The notes below the pieces were generated by a model. The model was not told the origin of the DNA, ran no database searches, and saw nothing but the letters and a program-made list of their open reading frames with translations. 26,110 nucleotides of DNA from positions 1 to 26,110 of IMG/VR virus record IMGVR_UViG_3300009413_000068. The stretch is one strand, 5' to 3'. A program made the translations under genes and the position numbers. This document shows, in pieces, positions 9,101-26,110 of the stretch. The DNA comes from a virus. How positions within the stretch are numbered: the first letter of the stretch is position 1; each line of letters opens with the position of its first letter.

Positions 9101-9127
9101 CGCCGATGGATGAAGCAGGAGAAACGA

Positions 9128-9703
9128 ATGAAGGATTTATTACAGGAGATGGCTTCCGACGCCGGAAGCACCGCTGACAAGATAGACAGACTCGAAGACG
9201 ACCAACTCGACTCAATTGCGAAACTGGCAAATAATGCCGCGAACCTTGAGCAAATAATAGTCACGACGGAGGAACTGCTCAAGGAGCAAAAGCGGGCTCT
9301 TTATAAAATTACGGACGAGCAACTCCCGGAAGCTCTCGAAACGATGGGCCTCCAGAAGTTTACGCTTATGGACGGAGCGGAAATTTCCGTCAAACCTGTC
9401 TATGGCGCGTCCATACCGAAGAATCGAAAAGAAGAAGCTTTCAAATGGCTCCGCGACAATGATTTCGGAGACCTCGTGAAGAACAATGTCACGGTAACTT
9501 TTGGGCGCGGGGAAGATGGGGATGCAAAGACCTTTATAAACCTCTGCGGAATGAGAGGATATACCCCGAGCCAGCTTGAGAAAGTCGAGCCGATGACGTT
9601 GAAGGCATGGCTACGGGAAAGAGTCGAAGCGGGGGACGCCGTCCCGCTAGATTTATTCGGCGCATACATATCGCAACGTGCAACGATCAAGAGGAGCAAA
9701 TAG
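9128..9703 (+). CDS. conserved phage coiled-coil protein, unknown function
   Basis: The 191-residue product has an acidic helical N-terminal third (roughly residues 1-70), predicted to form a coiled coil, then a mixed alpha/beta part with a YGASIPKNRKEEAFKWLRDN segment. I recall similar proteins just upstream of ssDNA-binding or recombination proteins in many phages, without an established function. An ATG at 9110 would add six residues. I chose ATG 9128 because AGGAG at 9117-9121 sits 6 nt upstream. It is the first gene of the plus-strand replication operon and ends 2 nt before the next gene, suggesting a role in DNA replication or recombination. Confidence 0.8.
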   Translation: MKDLLQEMASDAGSTADKIDRLEDDQLDSIAKLANNAANLEQIIVTTEELLKEQKRALYKITDEQLPEALETMGLQKFTLMDGAEISVKPVYGASIPKNRKEEAFKWLRDNDFGDLVKNNVTVTFGRGEDGDAKTFINLCGMRGYTPSQLEKVEPMTLKAWLRERVEAGDAVPLDLFGAYISQRATIKRSK

Positions 9704-9705
9704 AC

Positions 9706-10524
9706 ATGGCCCGAACGGCAGTATCGAAGAAAAACGGCAAAAACGGCAAAAACGGCAAAAACGGCAAAAGCAAACAAGCGGTTGCTGTAATGAGCGCCAC
9801 GATGTTTGCGAAAGATGCAGGCAGAGGCGTAAATGATCTGAATTCAGAGGATCTTGCAATTCCTTTCCTAAAGGTTCTGCAAAAAATGTCCGATGAATTG
9901 GACGATCTGGACAATGCCAAGGCTGGAGACATTTACAACACCGTCACAAAAGAAGTGGTCAAAGGTGGGACTGGCGTCCGCGTGATAAACTGTGCGTATA
10001 ACTTACAGCACATCGAATGGGAGCCGCGTGGAACGGGCTCGAAGGCACCTCTTAATATTTATGGTGCAGGCGACGACATCCCAAAAACCGAGCGCGGCGA
10101 CGACAATAAGGATTACATCGTCGATGGAGATGGTCGTTACCTCGAAAAGACGGCACAGCACTACGTGCTCATAATTGATGAGGATGGCGTGACGCAGCAA
10201 GCTCTCCTGCCCATGAAATCGACACAGCTAAAGAAGTCGAAGCAATGGAACTCCGCCATGCGGTCTCTCAAGATGAAAGACGCCAGCGGCAATATATTTA
10301 CCCCGCCACGTTTCGGCCACATTTGGCGTCTCGAAACCGTGGCCGAGGAGAACAAGAACGGCTCCTGGCATGGCTGGCAAATCTCAAAGGATTCACAAAT
10401 CGAAGATCCCGGCCTCTATGCCGAGGCAAAGTTCTTTGCAGACTCAATTCAAGCAGGAAAGGTGAACGTGCAACATCAGCGAGAGGATTCATCCGCCTCT
10501 TCTGACGAAAACACACCCTTCTGA
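9706..10524 (+). CDS. candidate phage single-stranded-DNA-binding protein
   Basis: The 272-residue protein starts with a basic low-complexity segment (four Lys-Asn-Gly units, residues 9-20). It continues with a mixed alpha/beta core rich in short beta segments (VRVINCAYNLQHIEW, QHYVLIIDEDG) and ends in a Ser/Asp/Glu-rich tail finishing DENTPF. An acidic tail with a terminal Pro-Phe is the hallmark by which SSB proteins recruit partner enzymes. The gene lies directly before the primase. AGGAG at 9692-9696 supports ATG 9706; earlier in-frame starts overlap the upstream gene without a ribosome site. The ssDNA-binding role is inferred from tail, position and operon; I cannot identify an OB fold with certainty. 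Confidence 0.62.
   Translation: MARTAVSKKNGKNGKNGKNGKSKQAVAVMSATMFAKDAGRGVNDLNSEDLAIPFLKVLQKMSDELDDLDNAKAGDIYNTVTKEVVKGGTGVRVINCAYNLQHIEWEPRGTGSKAPLNIYGAGDDIPKTERGDDNKDYIVDGDGRYLEKTAQHYVLIIDEDGVTQQALLPMKSTQLKKSKQWNSAMRSLKMKDASGNIFTPPRFGHIWRLETVAEENKNGSWHGWQISKDSQIEDPGLYAEAKFFADSIQAGKVNVQHQREDSSASSDENTPF
9730..9765 (+). repeat. 4 x 9-bp in-frame tandem repeat (AAAAACGGC)
   Basis: Four perfect head-to-tail copies encode Lys-Asn-Gly x4 in the N-terminal arm of the candidate ssDNA-binding protein. The array is prone to slippage but stays in frame. The positive charge may help contact DNA. Confidence 0.95.
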
Positions 10525-10538
10525 GTTGGGGGGAGAGG

Positions 10539-10570
10539 GGGGGAGGTCTTGACTCCGCCTCCCCCTTTTT
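10539..10570 (+). terminator. probable intrinsic terminator between ssDNA-binding gene and primase
   Basis: GGGGGAGG (10539-10546) pairs perfectly with CCTCCCCC (10558-10565) around an 11-nt loop and is followed by five T residues. A longer G-rich tract (10528-10546) precedes it. It ends 7 nt before the primase ATG, so read-through transcripts would carry this hairpin just upstream of the start. It may therefore set the primase level relative to the ssDNA-binding protein. Confidence 0.7.
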
Positions 10571-10577
10571 CTTTGGG

Positions 10578-12122
10578 ATGAAAAAAGAAATCGAAAGATT
10601 CGCACGACTTTTCCGTGGCTTGAACCGGGCCTACGGTGCCGTAGACCTGACCGGAAAAGACGCGAGCGGCAAGTGGAAGGGCAAATACAAATTTGTCCAC
10701 GAACCACGGACCAGTGCTACTTATGCCGCACATCTAAGCGGTAAAACAAGCATTGGTGTTGTCCCGATAAACGAGAACAACGTATGTGTCTGGGGCGCAA
10801 TCGACATCGACCAGTATCCGTTGGATCATTCCGCGATACTAAAGAAACTCCAGGAACTTGACCTTCCCCTCGTTGTCTGCCGCAGCAAGAGCGGCGGAGC
10901 GCACGTCTATTTGTTTTTAAAAGAATTTGTAGAAGCCGGGAAACTCCAGTTGAAGCTGAAAGAAGTTGCAGCAGAGATTGGTTTCGGTGGGTGCGAGGTT
11001 TTCCCAAAACAAATTCAATTGGTCTTAGACCGAGGCGACAACGGCAACTTCCTGAACTTGCCTTATTTTGACCATGAAAACGGGCTCCGGTACGCGGTAA
11101 AGGATGATGGCAGCAGGGCCAGTCTGGAAGAGTTCCTCACCTACGCAGAAGCCGCCTCGATAACCGGGGAACAACTCGACAATCTCCTTGCAAAAGAGTC
11201 ACCGGAAGTGGACCAAAAGCTGAAGGATGGTCCGCCATGTTTGCAGGCACTTTTGCGACAGGGCTTTCCTCAAGGCACTAGAAACAATGGCCTATTTAAT
11301 CTGGGAGTCTATCTCAGAAAAGCCTATCCAGATGCCTGGGATAAAAAGATCCTCGAATACAATCAACAAATCATGGACCCACCTCTTGCGTTGAACGAAG
11401 TCAACATCGTTGCAGATCAGGTCAAGAAGAAGGACTACCAATACAAATGTGCCGACCAGCCCATATGTAATTTCTGCAACAAGGATCTTTGCCGCTCGCG
11501 TAAGCACGGGGTTGGCGGGGGATCAAACACTCCTTCTGTAGCTAACCTGCGGAAATACGACAGCGAGCCGCCGCTTTGGTTTCTCGACGTGAATGGGAGT
11601 CCCGTCGAACTGGACACCGAGGGCCTACAGAAGCAGATCCGGTTCCAGATGCTGTGCATGGACCAGATCAACTTCATGCCGAGAACGATGTCCAAGCAGG
11701 CGTGGGAGACACTAATCAACATGCTCTTGGGCACGATGCTCGACACAGAAGGGGCGGTCATCACGACCTCCGACGATACAAGTTTGCGCGGACAATTTTA
11801 TGATTTGCTTGAAGAATTTTCGACGCACATGCAGTCCGCGATGGACAGGGAAGAGATCCTTCTCCGCCGCCCATGGACTGATGAAGAAGAAGGACGAACC
11901 TACTTCCGGCTAAAGGATTTCGAGGCTTTCCTAAAGCGCAGCAAATTTTTTGACTATCGGTCGAACAAAATTGCCCAAAGGCTCAGAGAGATCGACGGGA
12001 GGGCAGAACAGTTCAGGATCAAAGGAAGAACAGTTCGTTGCTGGTCTGTTCCCTCTTTCGCCAAAATCGAAGACGGGTTTGAAACACGATTCAATGATGA
12101 CGCCGAGGACATACCCTTCTAA
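10578..12122 (+). CDS. archaeo-eukaryotic-type primase / primase-polymerase
   Basis: The 514-residue protein has an N-terminal AEP-like catalytic domain: metal-binding AIDID (D76, D78), then SKSGGAHVYLFL with the S-G-G-x-H nucleotide-binding signature (S105-H109), and a third acidic segment LVLDRGDNGNFLNLPYF (about 148-164). A helical primase C-terminal-like segment follows (RNNGLFNLGVYLRKAYP, about 235-251), then a Cys cluster (C291, C297, C300, C305), probably a zinc or iron-sulfur site, and a C-terminal winged-helix-like part. It would make primers for the phage polymerase. Its last residues, DDAEDIPF, closely mimic the bacterial SSB tip. No strong Shine-Dalgarno precedes ATG 10578 (only TTGGG), and a hairpin sits just upstream. 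Its stop overlaps the next ATG as TAATG. Confidence 0.87.
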   Translation: MKKEIERFARLFRGLNRAYGAVDLTGKDASGKWKGKYKFVHEPRTSATYAAHLSGKTSIGVVPINENNVCVWGAIDIDQYPLDHSAILKKLQELDLPLVVCRSKSGGAHVYLFLKEFVEAGKLQLKLKEVAAEIGFGGCEVFPKQIQLVLDRGDNGNFLNLPYFDHENGLRYAVKDDGSRASLEEFLTYAEAASITGEQLDNLLAKESPEVDQKLKDGPPCLQALLRQGFPQGTRNNGLFNLGVYLRKAYPDAWDKKILEYNQQIMDPPLALNEVNIVADQVKKKDYQYKCADQPICNFCNKDLCRSRKHGVGGGSNTPSVANLRKYDSEPPLWFLDVNGSPVELDTEGLQKQIRFQMLCMDQINFMPRTMSKQAWETLINMLLGTMLDTEGAVITTSDDTSLRGQFYDLLEEFSTHMQSAMDREEILLRRPWTDEEEGRTYFRLKDFEAFLKRSKFFDYRSNKIAQRLREIDGRAEQFRIKGRTVRCWSVPSFAKIEDGFETRFNDDAEDIPF

Positions 12123-16652: not shown

Positions 16653-16717
16653 TGACCGCCGTCTTTGCAACCGCCGTCTTCTATACCATCTGCCTTATTG
16701 TTGCCTCACTTTCCTAG
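16649..16717 (+). CDS. possible 22-residue membrane peptide
   Basis: ATG ATG at 16649 opens a frame encoding MMTAVFATAVFYTICLIVASLS, essentially one transmembrane helix. AAAGGA about 9 nt upstream is a plausible ribosome site. The start overlaps the RHH stop and the frame overlaps the 5' end of the methyltransferase gene, so it may also serve to deliver ribosomes to that gene. It is too short to be sure. Confidence 0.35.
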   Translation: MMTAVFATAVFYTICLIVASLS

Positions 16718-17282
16718 GAAGAAGTACGGCGTAATCTACGCCGACCCACCATGGACGTTCAGGACGTGGAGCAAGGCGGGGAAGGGCCGTTCTCCCGAAA
16801 AGCATTATGGTTGCCTGAGCCTAGCGGATATCCGGGCGCTCCCTGTTGCAGAAATCGCCAAAAGGGACTGCGCCCTTTTTATCTGGGTCACCGATCCAAT
16901 GCTGCCGGAGGCATTCAAAGTCATTGATGCGTGGGGCTTCAAGTACAAAACGGTAGGCTTCGTCTGGGCCAAGCTCAACGCTACCGCGCCCAAATTCCAT
17001 TGGCACTTGATTTCCGCAACAGATTTCTTCACAGGCATGGGATATTGGACCCGAGCCAACTCAGAGTTGTGCCTTCTCGCAACGCGGGGCAAGCCCAAAC
17101 GAGAGTCCAAAGCCGTCCATAGGCTAGTTATCGACCACCGCCGCGAACATTCCCGCAAGCCCGATTCTGTGGCCGAGAAAATTGTCGAACTCATGGGGAA
17201 TGTTCCTAGAATCGAATTGTTCGCCAGGGAACACCGAGCGGGCTGGGACACCTGGGGCAACGAGGCCGGTAAATTTGATTGA
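16701..17282 (+). CDS. MT-A70-family adenine N6-methyltransferase
   Basis: The product (193 residues from TTG 16701) has the MT-A70 core: KKYGVIYADPPW with catalytic DPPW near residues 15-18, the S-adenosylmethionine-pocket segment FIWVTDPML, then FTGMGYWTRANSELCLLATRGKPKR and the C-terminal PRIELFAREHRAGWDTWGNE. It should methylate adenine N6 in DNA, often protecting phage DNA from host restriction. No ATG or GTG precedes the core: the frame is closed at 16653-16655, and only TTG codons (16665, 16698, 16701) are available. The start is therefore uncertain. TTG 16698/16701 give the N-terminus most like relatives and lie inside the 22-residue ORF, consistent with coupling. Confidence 0.9.
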   Translation: MPHFPRKKYGVIYADPPWTFRTWSKAGKGRSPEKHYGCLSLADIRALPVAEIAKRDCALFIWVTDPMLPEAFKVIDAWGFKYKTVGFVWAKLNATAPKFHWHLISATDFFTGMGYWTRANSELCLLATRGKPKRESKAVHRLVIDHRREHSRKPDSVAEKIVELMGNVPRIELFAREHRAGWDTWGNEAGKFD

Positions 17283-17785: not shown

Positions 17786-18012
17786 TGACCGACGACGAAA
17801 GCCGCATACGGGGACGGCAATGGCTGCGGAAAGAACTAGAAAAGCCAACCAAGCTGGAGGTCAAAATTGCACGTTGCGAGAGGGCCTGTGAGGAAGCTGC
17901 CGACCCAGACATAAAAATTATCTGGGCGGCAAAGGTGCGCGAGCTACGGCGCAAGAATCCTAGGGTGTTAGGAGGTGAAAATGAAAGCCAGTCCCGAAGA
18001 ACCGAGGAATAA
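17785..18012 (+). CDS. hypothetical charged helical protein (75 aa)
   Basis: I chose GTG 17785 because it overlaps the upstream stop (TAGTG). A longer form from 17713 would run antiphase through the zinc-ribbon gene. The product is helical and highly charged (KLEVKIARCERACEEAADPDIKIIWAAKVRELRRK), suggesting a small coiled-coil hairpin. No family recognised. It overlaps the next gene by 32 nt. Confidence 0.5.
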   Translation: MTDDESRIRGRQWLRKELEKPTKLEVKIARCERACEEAADPDIKIIWAAKVRELRRKNPRVLGGENESQSRRTEE

Positions 18013-18163
18013 ACAATTTGTGGATCCGTGGGGCAAATGCTTCAGGTGCGGGGGACAAATGATCCAAGGTGGCGACCACGACGACGAGAGTGGTGACCAT
18101 CTGATTGTCTCCAACTTTCACTGCCCGGGCTGCGGCTCGGACGCACTATTTTTTTGGGGCTAA
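17981..18163 (+). CDS. zinc-ribbon small protein (60 aa)
   Basis: GGAGG at 17971-17975 sits 5 nt before ATG 17981, the best ribosome site in this cluster. Cys pairs CFRC (C20/C23) and CPGC (C48/C51) bracket an Asp/His-rich loop (GDHDDESGDH), giving a typical zinc ribbon and possibly extra metal ligands. It ends just before the promoter-like element that precedes the IS110-like gene. Confidence 0.72.
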   Translation: MKASPEEPRNKQFVDPWGKCFRCGGQMIQGGDHDDESGDHLIVSNFHCPGCGSDALFFWG

Positions 18164-18174
18164 CCAAAAAAAGA

Positions 18175-18205
18175 GTTTGACTATATGGGATCAGTCTTGT
18201 ACGTC
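18175..18205 (+). promoter_or_regulatory. promoter-like element with conserved 17-mer (copy 1)
   Basis: GTTTGACTATATGGGAT (18175-18191) differs at one base from a second copy at 23394-23410. It contains a TTGACT -35-like hexamer; 17 bp further lies a weak TACGTC. The 17-mer ends 46 nt before the GTG of the IS110-like gene; the second copy ends 47 nt before its gene. Conserved sequence and distance suggest a shared promoter or operator. Confidence 0.5.
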
Positions 18206-18236
18206 TCTCTACCAGAGAAAATTGGAGGGACAAACA

Positions 18237-19073
18237 GTGGAACCAGAACTCAATCAGTCCGTCACGCGCATGAAGCGTGACATCAGAGAAGCAGCCGCGA
18301 CGTTGTCCGACAACGAGGCACGTTTTCTTGTTGGCTCTTACCACAATATGCAAGAATCGCGCATCAGGGCGTCCAATCAGATTCGAGCACTGGGGAACTC
18401 AGAGCCGCACACCACCCTAACGTGGCTGTCGCAACAGGCCCTGATCCTGGAAAAAAATGTCGGTCGCGCACTAGATGCGTACAGTGAGGCAGATCCCATC
18501 GGCGCGGTTATCCGCGAGGTCGTCGGCATCGGACCCGTGATCGCAGCGGGCTTGCGGGCACACCTCGACATCACCAAAGCCCCAACCGCCAGCGCCTTCT
18601 GGCGATTCGCGGGTCTCGACCCAAGTTCCACATGGGAAAAGGGACAAAAGAGACCCTGGAACGCGGAGTTAAAAACTCTCTGCTGGCAAATCGGCCAATC
18701 GTTCCAGAAATTCAGCAACCATCCGAGATGCTTCTACGGGGCCCTGTACAAGGAGAGAAAGGCACACGAAGTTGCCAGAAACGAGGCTGGAGACTTTTCC
18801 GGGCAGGCCGAGGTTTTCCGCAAAAAAGTCGGCAAAACGACCGCCGCGTATAAATACTACGCAAGCGGCAAGCTGCCGCCCGCGCACGTTGATGCCAGGG
18901 CGCGGCGGTGGGTCGTGAAACTCTTCCTGTCCCATCTCCACGCGGTGTGGTACGAGCACCATCATGGTGTAGCACCACCTGTGCCGTACATAATCGCTCA
19001 AGATCCGCGCCACACGAACCGCGTAGCGCCGCCATTCCAATTACCAGAAAAAGCGGCTAGCCATGATATGTGA
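18237..19073 (+). CDS. stand-alone IS110/Transposase_20-type HhH protein
   Basis: The 278-residue product matches the C-terminal transposase domain of IS110/IS116/IS902 proteins: a helix-hairpin-helix VVGIGPVIAAGLRAHLDI (about 95-112) followed by the diagnostic FWRFAGLDP (121-129). A helical N-terminal part (residues 1-90) replaces the DEDD RuvC-like catalytic domain of true IS110 transposases, and a basic C-terminus ends near HTNR. Such proteins recur in phages without IS features, so I read it as a DNA-structure-binding phage protein rather than an active transposase. I chose GTG 18237 because GGAGG (18224-18228) lies 8 nt upstream. An unusual repeat array begins 19 nt after its stop. Confidence 0.75.
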   Translation: MEPELNQSVTRMKRDIREAAATLSDNEARFLVGSYHNMQESRIRASNQIRALGNSEPHTTLTWLSQQALILEKNVGRALDAYSEADPIGAVIREVVGIGPVIAAGLRAHLDITKAPTASAFWRFAGLDPSSTWEKGQKRPWNAELKTLCWQIGQSFQKFSNHPRCFYGALYKERKAHEVARNEAGDFSGQAEVFRKKVGKTTAAYKYYASGKLPPAHVDARARRWVVKLFLSHLHAVWYEHHHGVAPPVPYIIAQDPRHTNRVAPPFQLPEKAASHDM

Positions 19074-19091
19074 AAAAATCACACGCTTTGA

Positions 19092-19446
19092 GAGCGAGCC
19101 ACCTTGGTCGAGTACACCCAAATTAAATGAGCGAGCCAGATCTAGAGAAAGTCCAAACCCAGAGTTTGAGAGCGAGCCCAGATCAGTCGATTACACCCAG
19201 ATCAATGGAGCGAGCCTGTCGTGGTGAACGTCCAAACCCAGGTCAATGGAGCGAGCCAGACTTGTTGAGTACACCCAGATTAAACGAGCGAGCCAGCCTT
19301 GTTGAGTACACCCAAATTAAATGAGCGAGCCCGCAACGGTGACTAACACCCAAATAAGGAGAGCGAGCCCTATGTGGTGATTCAAACCCATGTACGACGA
19401 GCGAGCCAGGACTAATGATTCAAACCCCCATATTCCAAGAGCGACC
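19092..19446 (+). repeat. array of ten 37-41-bp units with bipartite ACCCA-N8-GAGCGAGCC sites
   Basis: GAGCGAGCC occurs at 19092, 19129, 19170, 19208, 19249, 19286, 19323, 19361 and 19399, with a decayed copy (GAGCGACC) at 19439. Eight of these are preceded by ACCCA with exactly 8 nt between (ACCCA at 19116, 19157, 19195, 19236, 19273, 19310, 19348, 19386). The stretch between one GAGCGAGCC and the next ACCCA varies from 15 to 19 nt. Constant internal spacing with variable linkers indicates tandem binding sites for a protein, or a repeated RNA module. No long reading frame crosses the array convincingly. It lies between the IS110-like gene and a zinc-ribbon gene whose ATG follows the last unit by 5 nt. 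Confidence 0.93.
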
Positions 19447-19451
19447 AATAA

Positions 19452-19616
19452 ATGTCTGACGACAGGCAGTGCCACCGCTGCGGCGGAACCGACGAGTTCC
19501 TCTACGAAATAGGCGGCGCGGCAATCTTTTATTGCGCTGGCTGCAAAGTTAGGACAGACTCCACGCACGAGGTTTACGGCGCGAAGGAGAAAGCGGTAGA
19601 CGAGGCTGGACGGTAA
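19452..19616 (+). CDS. zinc-ribbon small protein (54 aa)
   Basis: This 54-residue ORF has Cys pairs CHRC (C7/C10) and CAGC (C28/C31) spaced as in a compact zinc ribbon, with YEIGGAAIFYC forming the intervening beta hairpin. The C-terminal part is charged. The ATG follows the last unit of the repeat array; no strong ribosome site is present (AAGAG lies too far away). It resembles the other small Cys-pair proteins in this region. Confidence 0.65.
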   Translation: MSDDRQCHRCGGTDEFLYEIGGAAIFYCAGCKVRTDSTHEVYGAKEKAVDEAGR

Positions 19617-19666
19617 CAGCGCCCCAAAGTCCCCCTCGCCGGTACCCTTGGCGCAGGGGAATAGAC

Positions 19667-20011
19667 ATGAAACTAGCACTCACAGCTCTCTTTGTTTGTC
19701 TCGCGGTCTGCATGACAGGCGGCAGCGCGGCAGCGCAATATCTCAAGAATCCTGATCTCAAGAATCCTGGGCCGGGAAACCGAATGGTATGCGCCGAGAG
19801 GTCGGACATCCTCCGCAAACTCGCCAACAATTTCGACGAGGCCCAGATAGCCATGGGTCTAGGGGACGGTGGCAGGGTGATCGAGGTCTTCGTCTCCCCT
19901 AGCGGCAGTTTCACGGTTTTGCTCTCATTTCCAACTGGGCATAGCTGCATAGCTGCCACTGGTGAGGGCTGGAGGTCCACAGAGACACGGGCAAGCCGGG
20001 AGACTCCCTAG
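19667..20011 (+). CDS. secreted / periplasmic protein of unknown function
   Basis: The 114-residue product has an N-terminal Sec signal peptide (MKLALTALFVCLAVCMTGGSAAAQ, cleavage likely after Ala-Ala-Ala or Ala-Gln near residue 23). The mature part is about 90 residues with CAERSDILRKLANNFDEAQIAMGLGDGGRVIEVFVSPSGSFTVLL and a second Cys in GHSCIAATGEGW. The two cysteines could form a disulfide in the periplasm. Similar small exported proteins occur in phages and Alphaproteobacteria without known function. AGGGGA lies 6 nt before ATG 19667. The short KNPDLKNPG stretch arises from a duplicated CTCAAGAATCCT. Confidence 0.78.
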   Translation: MKLALTALFVCLAVCMTGGSAAAQYLKNPDLKNPGPGNRMVCAERSDILRKLANNFDEAQIAMGLGDGGRVIEVFVSPSGSFTVLLSFPTGHSCIAATGEGWRSTETRASRETP

Positions 20012-20313
20012 AGCGCCGGGACAAACCACACCGCCCTCGTGCGCTCATTTACATAAGCTATCCTCACCCTAAGCAACTTTTGCAGGGCGCTCCGTTTGCG
20101 GTAGATCCTGGACCTCTTCCTCCTGTTCGGATTCACTCGGAAGCGGTCGGTCTTAGCGTCGAATAGGTAGAGCTTCCCCACTGACGTAATGGCGATCACG
20201 TCTACCGGACCCCAGGCCGACAAGGGGCGGTAGACGTACCAGCCGCGCCGGAGGAGATTCTCGACCAGAATCAGTTCGCTGATGTCGCCAATGACGTGCC
20301 GCGAAGAACCCAT
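20008..20313 (-). CDS. PD-(D/E)XK nuclease-like protein
   Basis: The 101-residue protein has the order GDISELILVENLLRRGW (E13), GPVDVIAI (D38) and KLYLFDAKTDR (D52, K54), the E...D...(D/E)xK layout of a compact PD-(D/E)XK nuclease, similar to PDDEXK endonucleases of Holliday-junction-resolvase or homing type. A basic C-terminal segment (NRRKRSRIYRKR) would contact DNA. It is the only minus-strand gene in the right half and overlaps the secreted-protein gene by 4 nt tail-to-tail. Its upstream side faces the duplicated origin-like module. No strong ribosome site precedes ATG 20313. Possible roles are recombination, origin processing or a selfish endonuclease. Confidence 0.72.
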   Translation of the reverse strand: MGSSRHVIGDISELILVENLLRRGWYVYRPLSAWGPVDVIAITSVGKLYLFDAKTDRFRVNPNRRKRSRIYRKRSALQKLLRVRIAYVNERTRAVWFVPAL

Positions 20314-20366: not shown

Positions 20367-20448
20367 GTTACCCACAGAAAAATGGCGTTTGCCACAAAAT
20401 GACCTTAAAATGACCTTATTTTCGCCACAATTTCGCCACAATTATATG
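20367..20448 (+). repeat. origin-associated module, copy A (82 bp)
   Basis: This segment repeats at 20973-21043. It begins with GTTACCCACAG, a DnaA-box-like TTACCCACA (20368-20376), continues with a CAGAAAAATGGCGTTTGCCA part, then two AAAATGACCTT units, then two TTTCGCCACAA units, and ends ATTATATG. Copy A has one extra 11-bp AAAATGACCTT unit compared with copy B. It lies between the minus-strand nuclease and the gene at 20501. Confidence 0.95.
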
Positions 20449-20500
20449 CGATAATACCCATACTAAAGAATCGTGAATACAACCCATGGGAGTCAGATCA

Positions 20501-20881
20501 ATGAATGCAAAGAACATGCAGGCGGAGCACGAAATCCGATACAACGACCCCCGCCGCTCCGGCTCTTTCTCGGAAGACGTTTATGCCGAATACTGGCTTG
20601 ACCCAAAAACGCAGGATCATCGGTCCAACTGCGCGGAGTGCAATCGACCAACCCTACGATCTTACGGAAGCGTCTGGGTCGATCGCGACGCGCCGTACCT
20701 CGGCAACGCCCGCGTTGTCAGGCGGGAGCCAGACCACGCGGGGTCATACAAAGGCTTGGACCGCCTACGCCTGACGCACGGACAATGGGCATCTTTCCGG
20801 TACGGCAAATTCTGTAGGCTACGCTGTGCTGAAGCATTCGCCAATGCGGCACACGACGCTGGCTATCGCAGACGTGCGTGA
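20501..20881 (+). CDS. hypothetical Cys-pair protein (126 aa) between the two origin modules
   Basis: ATG 20501 has GGGAG (20488-20492) 8 nt upstream; the in-frame ATG at 20486 overlaps that ribosome site and is less likely. The product is polar, with NCAECNRP (C-x2-C) in the middle and FCRLRCAEAF (C-x3-C) near the C-terminus, compatible with one metal site. No family is recognised. It is flanked by direct-repeat modules A and B and followed immediately by a perfect 17-bp hairpin, so the unit module-gene-hairpin-DnaA boxes-module could work as a replication control locus. Confidence 0.68.
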   Translation: MNAKNMQAEHEIRYNDPRRSGSFSEDVYAEYWLDPKTQDHRSNCAECNRPTLRSYGSVWVDRDAPYLGNARVVRREPDHAGSYKGLDRLRLTHGQWASFRYGKFCRLRCAEAFANAAHDAGYRRRA

Positions 20882-20883
20882 GC

Positions 20884-20924
20884 GCATGGTGCGCGGAGTC
20901 TAGCCTTGACTCCGCGCACCATGC
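20884..20924. other. perfect 17-bp inverted repeat (hairpin)
   Basis: GCATGGTGCGCGGAGTC (20884-20900) pairs perfectly with its complement at 20908-20924 around the loop TAGCCTT. It starts 2 nt after a stop codon, but no T-tract follows, so it is a poor intrinsic terminator. It sits 10 nt before the DnaA-box cluster and may act as a structural element of the origin. Confidence 0.9.
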
Positions 20925-20934
20925 TCCACGGATC

Positions 20935-21043
20935 TGTGGATAACTTGTGGATAACTTGTGGATAACTTTAGAGTTATCCACAGAAAAATGGCGTTTGCCA
21001 CAAAATGACCTTATTTTCGCCACAATTTCGCCACAATTATATG
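20935..21043. other. candidate DNA replication origin (DnaA-box cluster)
   Basis: Three perfect DnaA boxes in reverse orientation (TGTGGATAA at 20935, 20946 and 20957) are spaced exactly 11 bp apart. A fourth, TTATCCACA (20974-20982), is in the opposite orientation. Boxes 3 and 4 form an 11-bp inverted repeat with a 4-nt centre. An AT-rich stretch with 11-bp TTTCGCCACAA repeats follows and could be the unwinding element. Phased boxes beside an AT-rich repeat region is the architecture of DnaA-dependent origins. No dnaA is present, so host DnaA would be used. Confidence 0.72.
20973..21043 (+). repeat. origin-associated module, copy B (71 bp)
   Basis: Direct repeat of 20367-20448, nearly identical but lacking one 11-bp AAAATGACCTT unit and with a perfect DnaA box (TTATCCACA) where copy A has TTACCCACA. 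Both copies end in CGCCACAATTATATG. Confidence 0.95.
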
Positions 21044-21541: not shown

Positions 21542-21733
21542 ATGACCACCTACTATGATTTCCGGTGGCGCACGAACTGGGAGCTACAAATGATGGTCGA
21601 TGCTTTTGAGCATTCCGGCACCGACACACCGACCGAAGAGCAGAAACTAAAATCAGCCAAGCAAGAATTGGCTAACCGACGACACAAGCAAGAATTGGCT
21701 AACCGACGACACATCTTTCGACAACGAGACTAG
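21542..21733 (+). CDS. hypothetical protein (63 aa) with duplicated KQELANRRH
   Basis: ATG 21542 is preceded by GGGAG at 6 nt and starts 1 nt after the upstream stop. The product is helical and polar, beginning MTTYYDFRWRTNWELQMMVDAF and ending in a tandemly duplicated nine-residue segment KQELANRRH. No family is recognised; the RWRTNWEL segment resembles small phage proteins of unknown role. It is the last gene before a 392-nt non-coding stretch. Confidence 0.6.
   Translation: MTTYYDFRWRTNWELQMMVDAFEHSGTDTPTEEQKLKSAKQELANRRHKQELANRRHIFRQRD
21659..21712 (+). repeat. perfect 2 x 27-bp in-frame tandem duplication
   Basis: Positions 21659-21685 and 21686-21712 are identical and duplicate nine codons near the 3' end of the 63-residue ORF. 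Perfect identity suggests a recent slippage or duplication event. Confidence 0.97.
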
Positions 21734-25829: not shown

Positions 25830-25970
25830 ATGAAACTCACAGCGGGGCCCGTGGCGCTTGGCCCATGCGCCATGACGCCCGCCAGCGCCTGTAGTTTTGT
25901 CGGGCACCGCAACCCATGTCAGGTGCTCTTCGTGCGTCTGGAAGCATCCTGGGCGGTCGATTTTGGGTGA
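25830..25970 (+). CDS. doubtful 46-residue ORF before the terminal repeats
   Basis: ATG 25830 to the TGA that is also the first three bases of the terminal 10-bp repeat. The product contains three Cys but no recognisable motif, and no ribosome site is visible. A 9-bp inverted repeat, TGGCGCATG (25824-25832) with CATGCGCCA (25864-25872), overlaps its start. Otherwise 25778-25967 holds nothing I can identify. Confidence 0.15.
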   Translation: MKLTAGPVALGPCAMTPASACSFVGHRNPCQVLFVRLEASWAVDFG

Positions 25971-26057
25971 TTGAGCCTGATTGAGCCTGATTGAGCCTGA
26001 TTGAGCCTGATTGAGCCTGATTGAGCCTGATTGAGCCTGATTGAGCCTGATTGAGCC
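25968..26057. repeat. 9 perfect tandem copies of a 10-bp unit (TGATTGAGCC)
   Basis: Ninety bases consist of nine identical TGATTGAGCC units, one helical turn each, directly abutting a second array. There is no reading frame. Exact identity indicates recent expansion or active maintenance. Confidence 0.97.
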
Positions 26058-26110
26058 TTCGATGTCGCTCGCCTTCGATGTCGCTCGCCTTCGATGTCGC
26101 TCGCCTTCGA
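26058..26110. repeat. tandem 16-bp repeats (TTCGATGTCGCTCGCC) running off the window
   Basis: Three perfect copies (26058, 26074, 26090) and the first five bases of a fourth reach the window end, so total length is unknown. The array follows the 10-bp array with no gap. Confidence 0.96.

What the first reader, a model, noticed from the sequence alone, without database searches (positions are those of the whole stretch)
19092..19446. Array of eight fixed-geometry bipartite sites ACCCA-N8-GAGCGAGCC
Ten units of 37-41 bp occur. In eight, ACCCA and GAGCGAGCC are separated by exactly 8 nt, whereas the linker to the next site varies (15-19 nt) and the N8 sequence varies freely. That pattern means selection acts on a composite 22-bp site, not on the whole repeat. 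The edge units are decayed. Unit spacing is near 3.5-4 helical turns, so sites are broadly co-facing. I know of no described element with this motif. Candidates are a centromere- or enhancer-like array for a phage DNA-binding protein, or repeated RNA-binding modules.
Basis: seen in the sequence. Interest (0 to 1): 0.82.

Follow-up and report, generated by a model that had tools for sequence, protein, structure and literature searches.

The report
Phage-borne TIGR-Tas RNA-guide array
The repeats are a guide-RNA array of a TIGR-Tas system, a family described in 2025 whose short double guides lead a phage protein to matching DNA; this phage's copy is a typical member except that one of its two repeats varies in length from unit to unit.

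Summary
The repeats are a TIGR array directly downstream of, and slightly overlapping, a gene for a nuclease-free Nop-domain protein (TasA, 278 aa). The protein matches solved TasH and TasR structures by sequence (E 4e-12, 2e-7) and by fold (Z 20.9, 18.3). GAGCGAGCC is the edge repeat, nearly identical to that of the experimentally proven SpTIGR of Salicola phage CGphi29. GA…ACCCA is the loop repeat. The "N8" and part of the "variable linker" are the two spacers. Parsed this way the array (19059-19443) has ten units, and all 20 spacers are exactly 8 nt.

A motif-only search and protein searches of public viral contigs gave over 100 loci with the same gene-array pair. Pairs with 80-97% identical tas DNA keep their repeats (83-100%), but most have near-random spacers (19-41%; one pair 71%). 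That is the signature of guides.

The window is unusual only in loop length (11-15 nt against 10), giving 37-41-nt units where relatives have 36. Most likely it encodes tigRNAs that steer a TasA dimer to bind and bend DNA without cutting. No natural target was established. New member of a known kind.

The parts
18237..19073 (+). tasA-like gene (GTG start, TGA stop, 278 aa): solo Nop-domain TIGR-associated protein, no nuclease domain
   Evidence: phmmer to PDB TasH 21kl E 3.9e-12 and TasR 9mty E 2.2e-7; AF2 model pLDDT 85, pTM 0.81; structural match to TasH Z 20.9 and TasR Z 18.3 over model residues 22-270; Pfam Transposase_20
18224..18228 (+). GGAGG, probable ribosome-binding site of tasA
   Evidence: read directly, 8 nt before the GTG
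19059..19443 (+). TIGR array, 10 units of 37-41 nt; all 20 spacers exactly 8 nt
   Evidence: parse
19059..19063 (+). 5'-truncated edge repeat AGCCA, inside the tasA coding sequence
   Evidence: relatives start the array at the tas stop codon (taaCCA / tagCCA)
19059..19096 (+). unit 1: spacer TGATATGT, loop GAAAAAATCACA (box C decayed), spacer CGCTTTGA
19097..19133 (+). unit 2: CCTTGGTC, loop GAGTACACCCA, AATTAAAT
19134..19174 (+). unit 3: GATCTAGA, loop GAAAGTCCAAACCCA, GAGTTTGA
19175..19212 (+). unit 4: GATCAGTC, loop GATTACACCCA, GATCAATG
19213..19253 (+). unit 5: GTCGTGGT, loop GAACGTCCAAACCCA, GGTCAATG
19254..19290 (+). unit 6: GACTTGTT, loop GAGTACACCCA, GATTAAAC
19291..19327 (+). unit 7: GCCTTGTT, loop GAGTACACCCA, AATTAAAT
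19328..19365 (+). unit 8: GCAACGGT, loop GACTAACACCCA, AATAAGGA
19366..19403 (+). unit 9: TATGTGGT, loop GATTCAAACCCA, TGTACGAC
19404..19443 (+). unit 10: GGACTAAT, loop GATTCAAACCCCCA, TATTCCAA, 3'-truncated edge GAGCG
19092..19101 (+). edge repeat 1 GAGCGAGCCA (further full copies at 19129, 19170 [11 nt], 19208, 19249, 19286, 19323, 19361, 19399)
   Evidence: first nine bases identical in all nine copies
19439..19443 (+). 3'-truncated edge repeat GAGCG that closes the array, 8 nt before the ATG of the next gene
   Evidence: the same ending in relatives and in SpTIGR

Best explanation
It is a dual-repeat TIGR array with its TasA protein, carried by a phage. Shown here: the protein is a Tas Nop-domain protein without a nuclease domain; the array has the edge-spacer-loop-spacer plan with truncated edges at both ends; many relatives have the same pair; and relatives keep repeats while exchanging spacers. 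Inferred from the published system: tas and array are co-transcribed. Cuts in the middle of each edge repeat (GAGCG|AGCC) release ten tigRNAs, here of about 37-41 nt. Each is held by a TasA dimer, whose two protomers grip the GA (box D) and CC(A) (box C) ends of edge and loop. The two 8-nt spacers pair with opposite strands of a roughly 16-18-bp DNA target. With no nuclease, the complex would bind and sharply bend the target, most plausibly blocking transcription or replication of competing mobile DNA, or less likely acting on the host. The loop repeat varies in length because only its ends touch the protein.
For: Protein: sequence match to TasH E 3.9e-12 and TasR E 2.2e-7; fold match to TasH Z 20.9 and TasR 18.3, above IS110-family recombinases at 14 and Nop5 at 7.2. 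Array: in the published SpTIGR (L284) the edge AAGCGAGCCA matches GAGCGAGCCA at 9 of 10 positions, and the paper gives 16 nt of spacer per SpTIGR guide, i.e. 8+8 as here. Window spacers are 8 nt in 20 of 20 cases. Co-occurrence: 27 of 34 array stretches hold Tas against 2 of 38, p 3e-11; 84 of 102 loci found by protein have an array of at least 4 units by this edge motif. Guide signature: L104/L105 have 96% identical tas DNA, edges 98%, loops 97%, spacers 25%; likewise L134/L162 and L120/L123. Within the window, a two-unit duplication keeps repeats (3 of 36 positions differ) but not spacers (20 of 32), p 2e-6. tigRNAs are predicted unstructured, as in dual-repeat rather than stem-loop arrays.
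Against: No target was established. Guides match their own contigs and 36 relatives' contigs no better than wrongly built controls. No expression data exist. Loop length is not constant (11-15 nt) and no terminator follows the array, whereas published arrays are constant within a locus and usually end in one. Window spacers resemble one another more than usual. Unit 1 has a decayed loop end. Mature tigRNAs longer than 36 nt are not reported in the paper for dual-repeat arrays. No relative closer than about 61% protein identity was found, so spacer exchange was shown in relatives, not for this array itself.
Confidence: 0.92

Rival explanations
1. A protein-binding DNA site array (centromere-, enhancer- or iteron-like) for a phage DNA-binding protein.
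For: Regular tandem sites with a fixed internal spacing.
Against: The adjacent gene is a Tas protein of an RNA-binding domain family. In relatives the N8 stretches are exchanged while the repeats stay, even when the gene is 96% identical, which a protein-binding site does not predict. The array starts at the tas stop codon in most relatives and runs in the gene's direction.
Confidence: 0.02
2. A real TIGR array that is decaying and no longer works.
For: Loops of uneven length, a decayed first unit, spacers resembling each other, no terminator.
Against: All 20 spacers keep 8 nt; the nine full edges share the same first nine bases; nine of ten loops keep the GA...CCCA ends; the gene is open over 278 codons with a good ribosome-binding site and a confident fold.
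Confidence: 0.07
3. An IS110-family transposon with a bridge RNA, as the Transposase_20 and PHROG 'transposase' labels suggest.
For: Pfam PF02371 at its cut-off and PHROG 4285 named transposase; IS110-type recombinases are the next structural match (Z 14).
Against: The DEDD catalytic domain is absent (the model aligns to IS621 from residue 125 on). There are ten repeated guide units instead of one bridge RNA, and the predicted RNAs do not fold. TasH and TasR match better.
Confidence: 0.02

Closest known systems
SpTIGR-TasH of Salicola phage CGphi29 (PMC12045711; PDB 21kl, 9w04)
   Same: Tailed phage; Nop-domain Tas gene followed by the array; edge AAGCGAGCCA against GAGCGAGCCA; 8-nt spacers; truncated edges at both ends.
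   Different: TasH has an N-terminal HNH nuclease, absent here (the model matches TasH from residue 64 on). SpTIGR loops are 10 nt (AAGACAACCA) and units mostly 36 nt, with a terminator; here loops are 11-15 nt, units 37-41 nt and no terminator follows.
TIGR-TasA (FpTIGR of Flavonifractor plautii, PMC12045711)
   Same: Solo Nop-domain protein with a dual-repeat array; presumably RNA-guided DNA binding without cleavage.
   Different: FpTIGR has 18 nt of spacer per guide (9+9), here 8+8. The FpTIGR sequences were not compared here.
TasR TIGR (TaTIGR, PDB 9mty)
   Same: Nop fold (Z 18.3), dual-repeat dual-spacer plan with box D and box C ends.
   Different: TasR has a RuvC nuclease, repeats starting UG and ending CCA, and 9-nt spacers.
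IS110 / IS621 bridge-RNA recombinases
   Same: Share the C-terminal RNA-binding domain fold (Z 14).
   Different: They carry a DEDD catalytic domain and one structured bridge RNA; here there is neither.
Archaeal box C/D snoRNP protein Nop5
   Same: Nop fold, weak match (1nt2, Z 7.2); two guides between C and D boxes.
   Different: It guides RNA methylation with fibrillarin and K-turns; none of these is seen here.

Membership tests
TIGR-Tas, dual-repeat type | Nop-domain Tas protein encoded next to the array | tested here: met
   gene and array overlap by a few codons
TIGR-Tas, dual-repeat type | Two distinct alternating short repeats separated by two short variable spacers of fixed size | tested here: met
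   Edge GAGCGAGCC(A) and loop GA...CCCA alternate; 20 of 20 spacers 8 nt
[quoted passage not shown]
   AGCCA at 19059 and GAGCG at 19439; the same in relatives and in SpTIGR
TIGR-Tas, dual-repeat type | Matching box D and box C motifs at the ends of both repeats | tested here: met
   GA at the start and CC(A) at the end of edges and loops, except the loop of unit 1
TIGR-Tas, dual-repeat type | Spacers differ between related loci while repeats are kept | tested here: met
   Nine pairs of relatives with 80-97% identical tas DNA: edges 91-100%, loops 83-100%, spacers 19-41% in eight pairs and 71% in one. Shown in relatives; for the window's own array only through its internal duplication
TIGR-Tas, dual-repeat type | Repeat sequence and length constant within the locus (typical in the paper, not stated as defining) | tested here: not met
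   Edge constant; loop 11, 12, 14 or 15 nt. Relatives are 36 nt in 1267 of 1500 intervals, with a few other uneven arrays (L058, L027, L199)
TIGR-Tas, dual-repeat type | Rho-independent terminator after the array (typical, not defining) | tested here: not met
   No terminator-like site on the + strand in 17900-20100; the next ATG follows at 19452
TIGR-Tas, dual-repeat type | Array processed into tigRNAs bound by Tas | not testable with these tools
   Needs small-RNA sequencing
TIGR-Tas, dual-repeat type | RNA-guided binding of both DNA strands | not testable with these tools
   Target searches gave chance-level results, which does not exclude it
TasA subclass | Solo Nop domain, no HNH or RuvC nuclease | tested here: met
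   278 aa; residues 22-270 cover TasH 64-309; no other Pfam domain
IS110 transposase | N-terminal DEDD (RuvC-like) catalytic domain | tested here: not met
   The best IS621/ISCro4 alignments start at residue 125 of those proteins
CRISPR-Cas | Single long repeat with single spacers and cas genes | tested here: not met
   Two alternating short repeats; the Tas protein and three nearby ORFs tested have no cas-type match in PADLOC; the window has no Rfam match

The most novel reading that the evidence does not exclude
Nuclease-free TasA arrays of this phage clade are an inter-phage interference system aimed at conserved genes of competitors, with guides turned over as fast as CRISPR spacers and with loops that may stretch without loss of function. 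One guide family in relatives (TAYCACGA / GGAAGCCC) occurs in both spacer orders in different phages, meaning one double-stranded target read from either strand. With a 2-bp gap it spells the codons TAY-CAC-GAT-TGG-GCT-TCC (Y-H-D-W-A-S) of the large-terminase gene in three unrelated groups of viral contigs.
Probability: 0.2. Interest if true: 0.75.

Novelty: new member of a known kind. Interest (0 to 1): 0.4.

Why it matters
TIGR-Tas was described only in 2025, and the targets and purpose of its commonest form, the nuclease-free TasA, are open. The clade offers close pairs that separate repeat conservation from spacer turnover. It gives evidence that arrays grow partly by duplicating neighbouring units, and arrays with uneven loops that could be used to test how much loop length matters.

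Tried and rejected
Rfam: no match. Target searches: the window's guides against its own contig, and 605 guides against 37 viruses' contigs (1.26 Mb): own 0-2 mismatch counts 37, controls 35, 40 and 40; others at chance. Searches did the same with the spacers paired across GAGCGAGCC, before I saw that this is the edge and not the loop; they now serve only as further controls. One search uses that older naming too. Synonymous-site periodicity of spacer differences between arrays: none. Shared guides between arrays with unrelated tas genes: few, and those listed at up to 2 mismatches are near relatives. The swapped guide family matches terminase codons, but the viral contigs that show it were fetched with that very pattern, overall hits (46) do not exceed chance, and the swap is a single family, so I treat it as a lead only. 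Stem-loop array or bridge RNA: predicted unit RNAs are no more stable than shuffles. A single-sequence structure job was superseded by the alignment-based one and not collected.

Full report
1. Observation. Eight exact ACCCA-N8-GAGCGAGCC sites lie in the window at 19116-19407, with weaker ones on either side; shuffled windows never reach that number. Tandem Repeats Finder and the direct-repeat finder report the same array and a 79-bp two-unit repeat inside it. The exact motif occurs nowhere else in this 26-kb viral record.

2. The neighbouring gene. The gene at 18237-19073 (GTG, preceded by GGAGG) encodes 278 aa. Pfam gives only a borderline Transposase_20 match and PHROGs calls it a transposase. 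Against solved structures the hits are TasH (E 3.9e-12) and TasR (E 2.2e-7). An AlphaFold2 model built from 15 sequences is good (pLDDT 85, pTM 0.81). Its best structural matches are TasH (Z 20.9) and TasR (Z 18.3), then IS110-type recombinases (Z 14) and more distantly Nop5 (Z 7.2). The match starts at TasH residue 64, so the HNH domain is missing. This is a TasA, the nuclease-free form described in PMC12045711.

3. The array. In PMC12045711 a TIGR array is edge - spacer A - loop - spacer B, starting with a 5'-truncated and ending with a 3'-truncated edge. In the experimentally tested SpTIGR of Salicola phage CGphi29 the sequence shows AAGCGAGCCA and AAGACAACCA alternating with 8-nt spacers; the truncated elements are (A)GTCA at the start and GAGCG at the end. 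In relatives of the window the array begins at the tas stop codon (taaCCA, tagCCA) and ends in GAGCG. So GAGCGAGCC is the edge and GA...CCCA is the loop; the paper's own figures were not available to check this naming. Parsed so, the window array runs from 19059 (inside the tas gene) to 19443. It has ten units and every one of its 20 spacers is 8 nt. Edges are 10 nt (one 11) and loops are 12, 11, 15, 11, 15, 11, 11, 12, 12 and 14 nt.

4. Relatives. A scan of public viral contigs for the DNA motif alone gave 72 stretches. Of the 34 with an array, 27 also hold a Tas gene; of the 38 without, 2 do (p 3e-11). Conversely, of 102 loci found with the protein, 84 carry an array of at least four units by this edge motif. 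Several of the others carry arrays with different repeats, for example L133, L202 and L203. Some relatives have longer N-terminal regions.

5. Spacers behave as guides. In nine pairs with 80-97% identical tas DNA, edges stay 91-100% and loops 83-100% identical. Spacers are 19-41% identical in eight pairs and 71% in one; L104/L105 is the clearest, with tas 96% and spacers 25%. Within arrays, similar units cluster at neighbouring positions (0.6% of pairs at distance 1 or 2, against 0.08% at distance 6 or more), and L178/L179 differ by two whole units. In the window, units 2-3 and 4-5 are a duplication in which 3 of 36 repeat positions but 20 of 32 spacer positions differ (p 2e-6). Arrays therefore grow at least partly by local duplication, and spacers then change fast; whether by mutation or replacement cannot be told.

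6. What is unusual here. Relatives' unit length is 36 nt in 1267 of 1500 intervals; the window has 37 (3), 38 (3) and 41 (2), the least uniform of 95 arrays, though L199, L058 and L027 come close. The extra bases lie almost only in the loop, between its conserved ends (one edge has one extra base). [quoted passage not shown] The prediction is tigRNAs of 37-41 nt.

7. Targets. With the published rule (spacer A on one strand, spacer B on the other, gap 0-2; the relative order was worked out from the reported 3' overhangs) no self-target and no target in 36 relatives' contigs exceeds controls. One guide family occurs in both spacer orders in different phages (2 pairs at up to 1 mismatch, against 0.015 expected from re-pairing, but effectively one family). 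With a 2-bp gap it matches the Y-H-D-W-A-S codons of large-terminase genes in three unrelated groups of viral contigs, with the TAT/TAC difference at the tyrosine wobble base. The terminase identification rests on my reading of the encoded proteins, not on a family search. This lead was found after the fact and is not proof.

8. Mechanism and verdict. Most likely: a tas-array transcript, cut within edges into ten guides; TasA dimers each carrying one guide; binding and bending of matching double-stranded DNA without cutting; effect on competing mobile DNA or the host by blocking access. The identity is well supported; processing, binding and purpose are inferred from the published family. It is a new member of a known kind with an uneven loop.

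Noticed in passing
relatives L103/L106/L108 against L123/L124/L128/L136: One guide family (TAYCACGA / RGAAGCCY) appears with its two spacers in either order; with a 2-bp gap it matches Y-H-D-W-A-S codons of large-terminase-like genes in L287/L317, L289 and L294/L315.
   Followed up: partly
relatives L102-L181: In many relatives the TIGR array starts exactly at the tas stop codon (taaCCA / tagCCA forms the truncated edge); in the window it starts inside the coding sequence.
   Followed up: yes
window 20375-21042: Three direct TTATCCACA (DnaA-box) copies 11 bp apart plus one inverted at 20935-20982 (five in the window, 0.17 expected), next to two copies of a long repeat with AAAATGACCTT and TTTCGCCACAA iterons: a possible replication origin.
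   Followed up: partly
window 25968-26110: Nine perfect copies of TGATTGAGCC followed by 3.5 perfect copies of GCCTTCGATGTCGCTC at the very end of the record; possibly an assembly artefact.
   Followed up: no
window 21658-21713: Perfect 27-bp tandem duplication inside a short open reading frame.
   Followed up: no
window 9110-12119 and 16665-17282: Pam3-phage-like gp33 and gp34 homologues, a TOTE-type primase-domain protein and an MT-A70 methyltransferase lie upstream of the tas gene.
   Followed up: no
L043, L089, L081: Relatives with this edge repeat include proteins of 366-522 aa with the Nop domain interrupted or preceded by other sequence, possible further Tas architectures.
   Followed up: no
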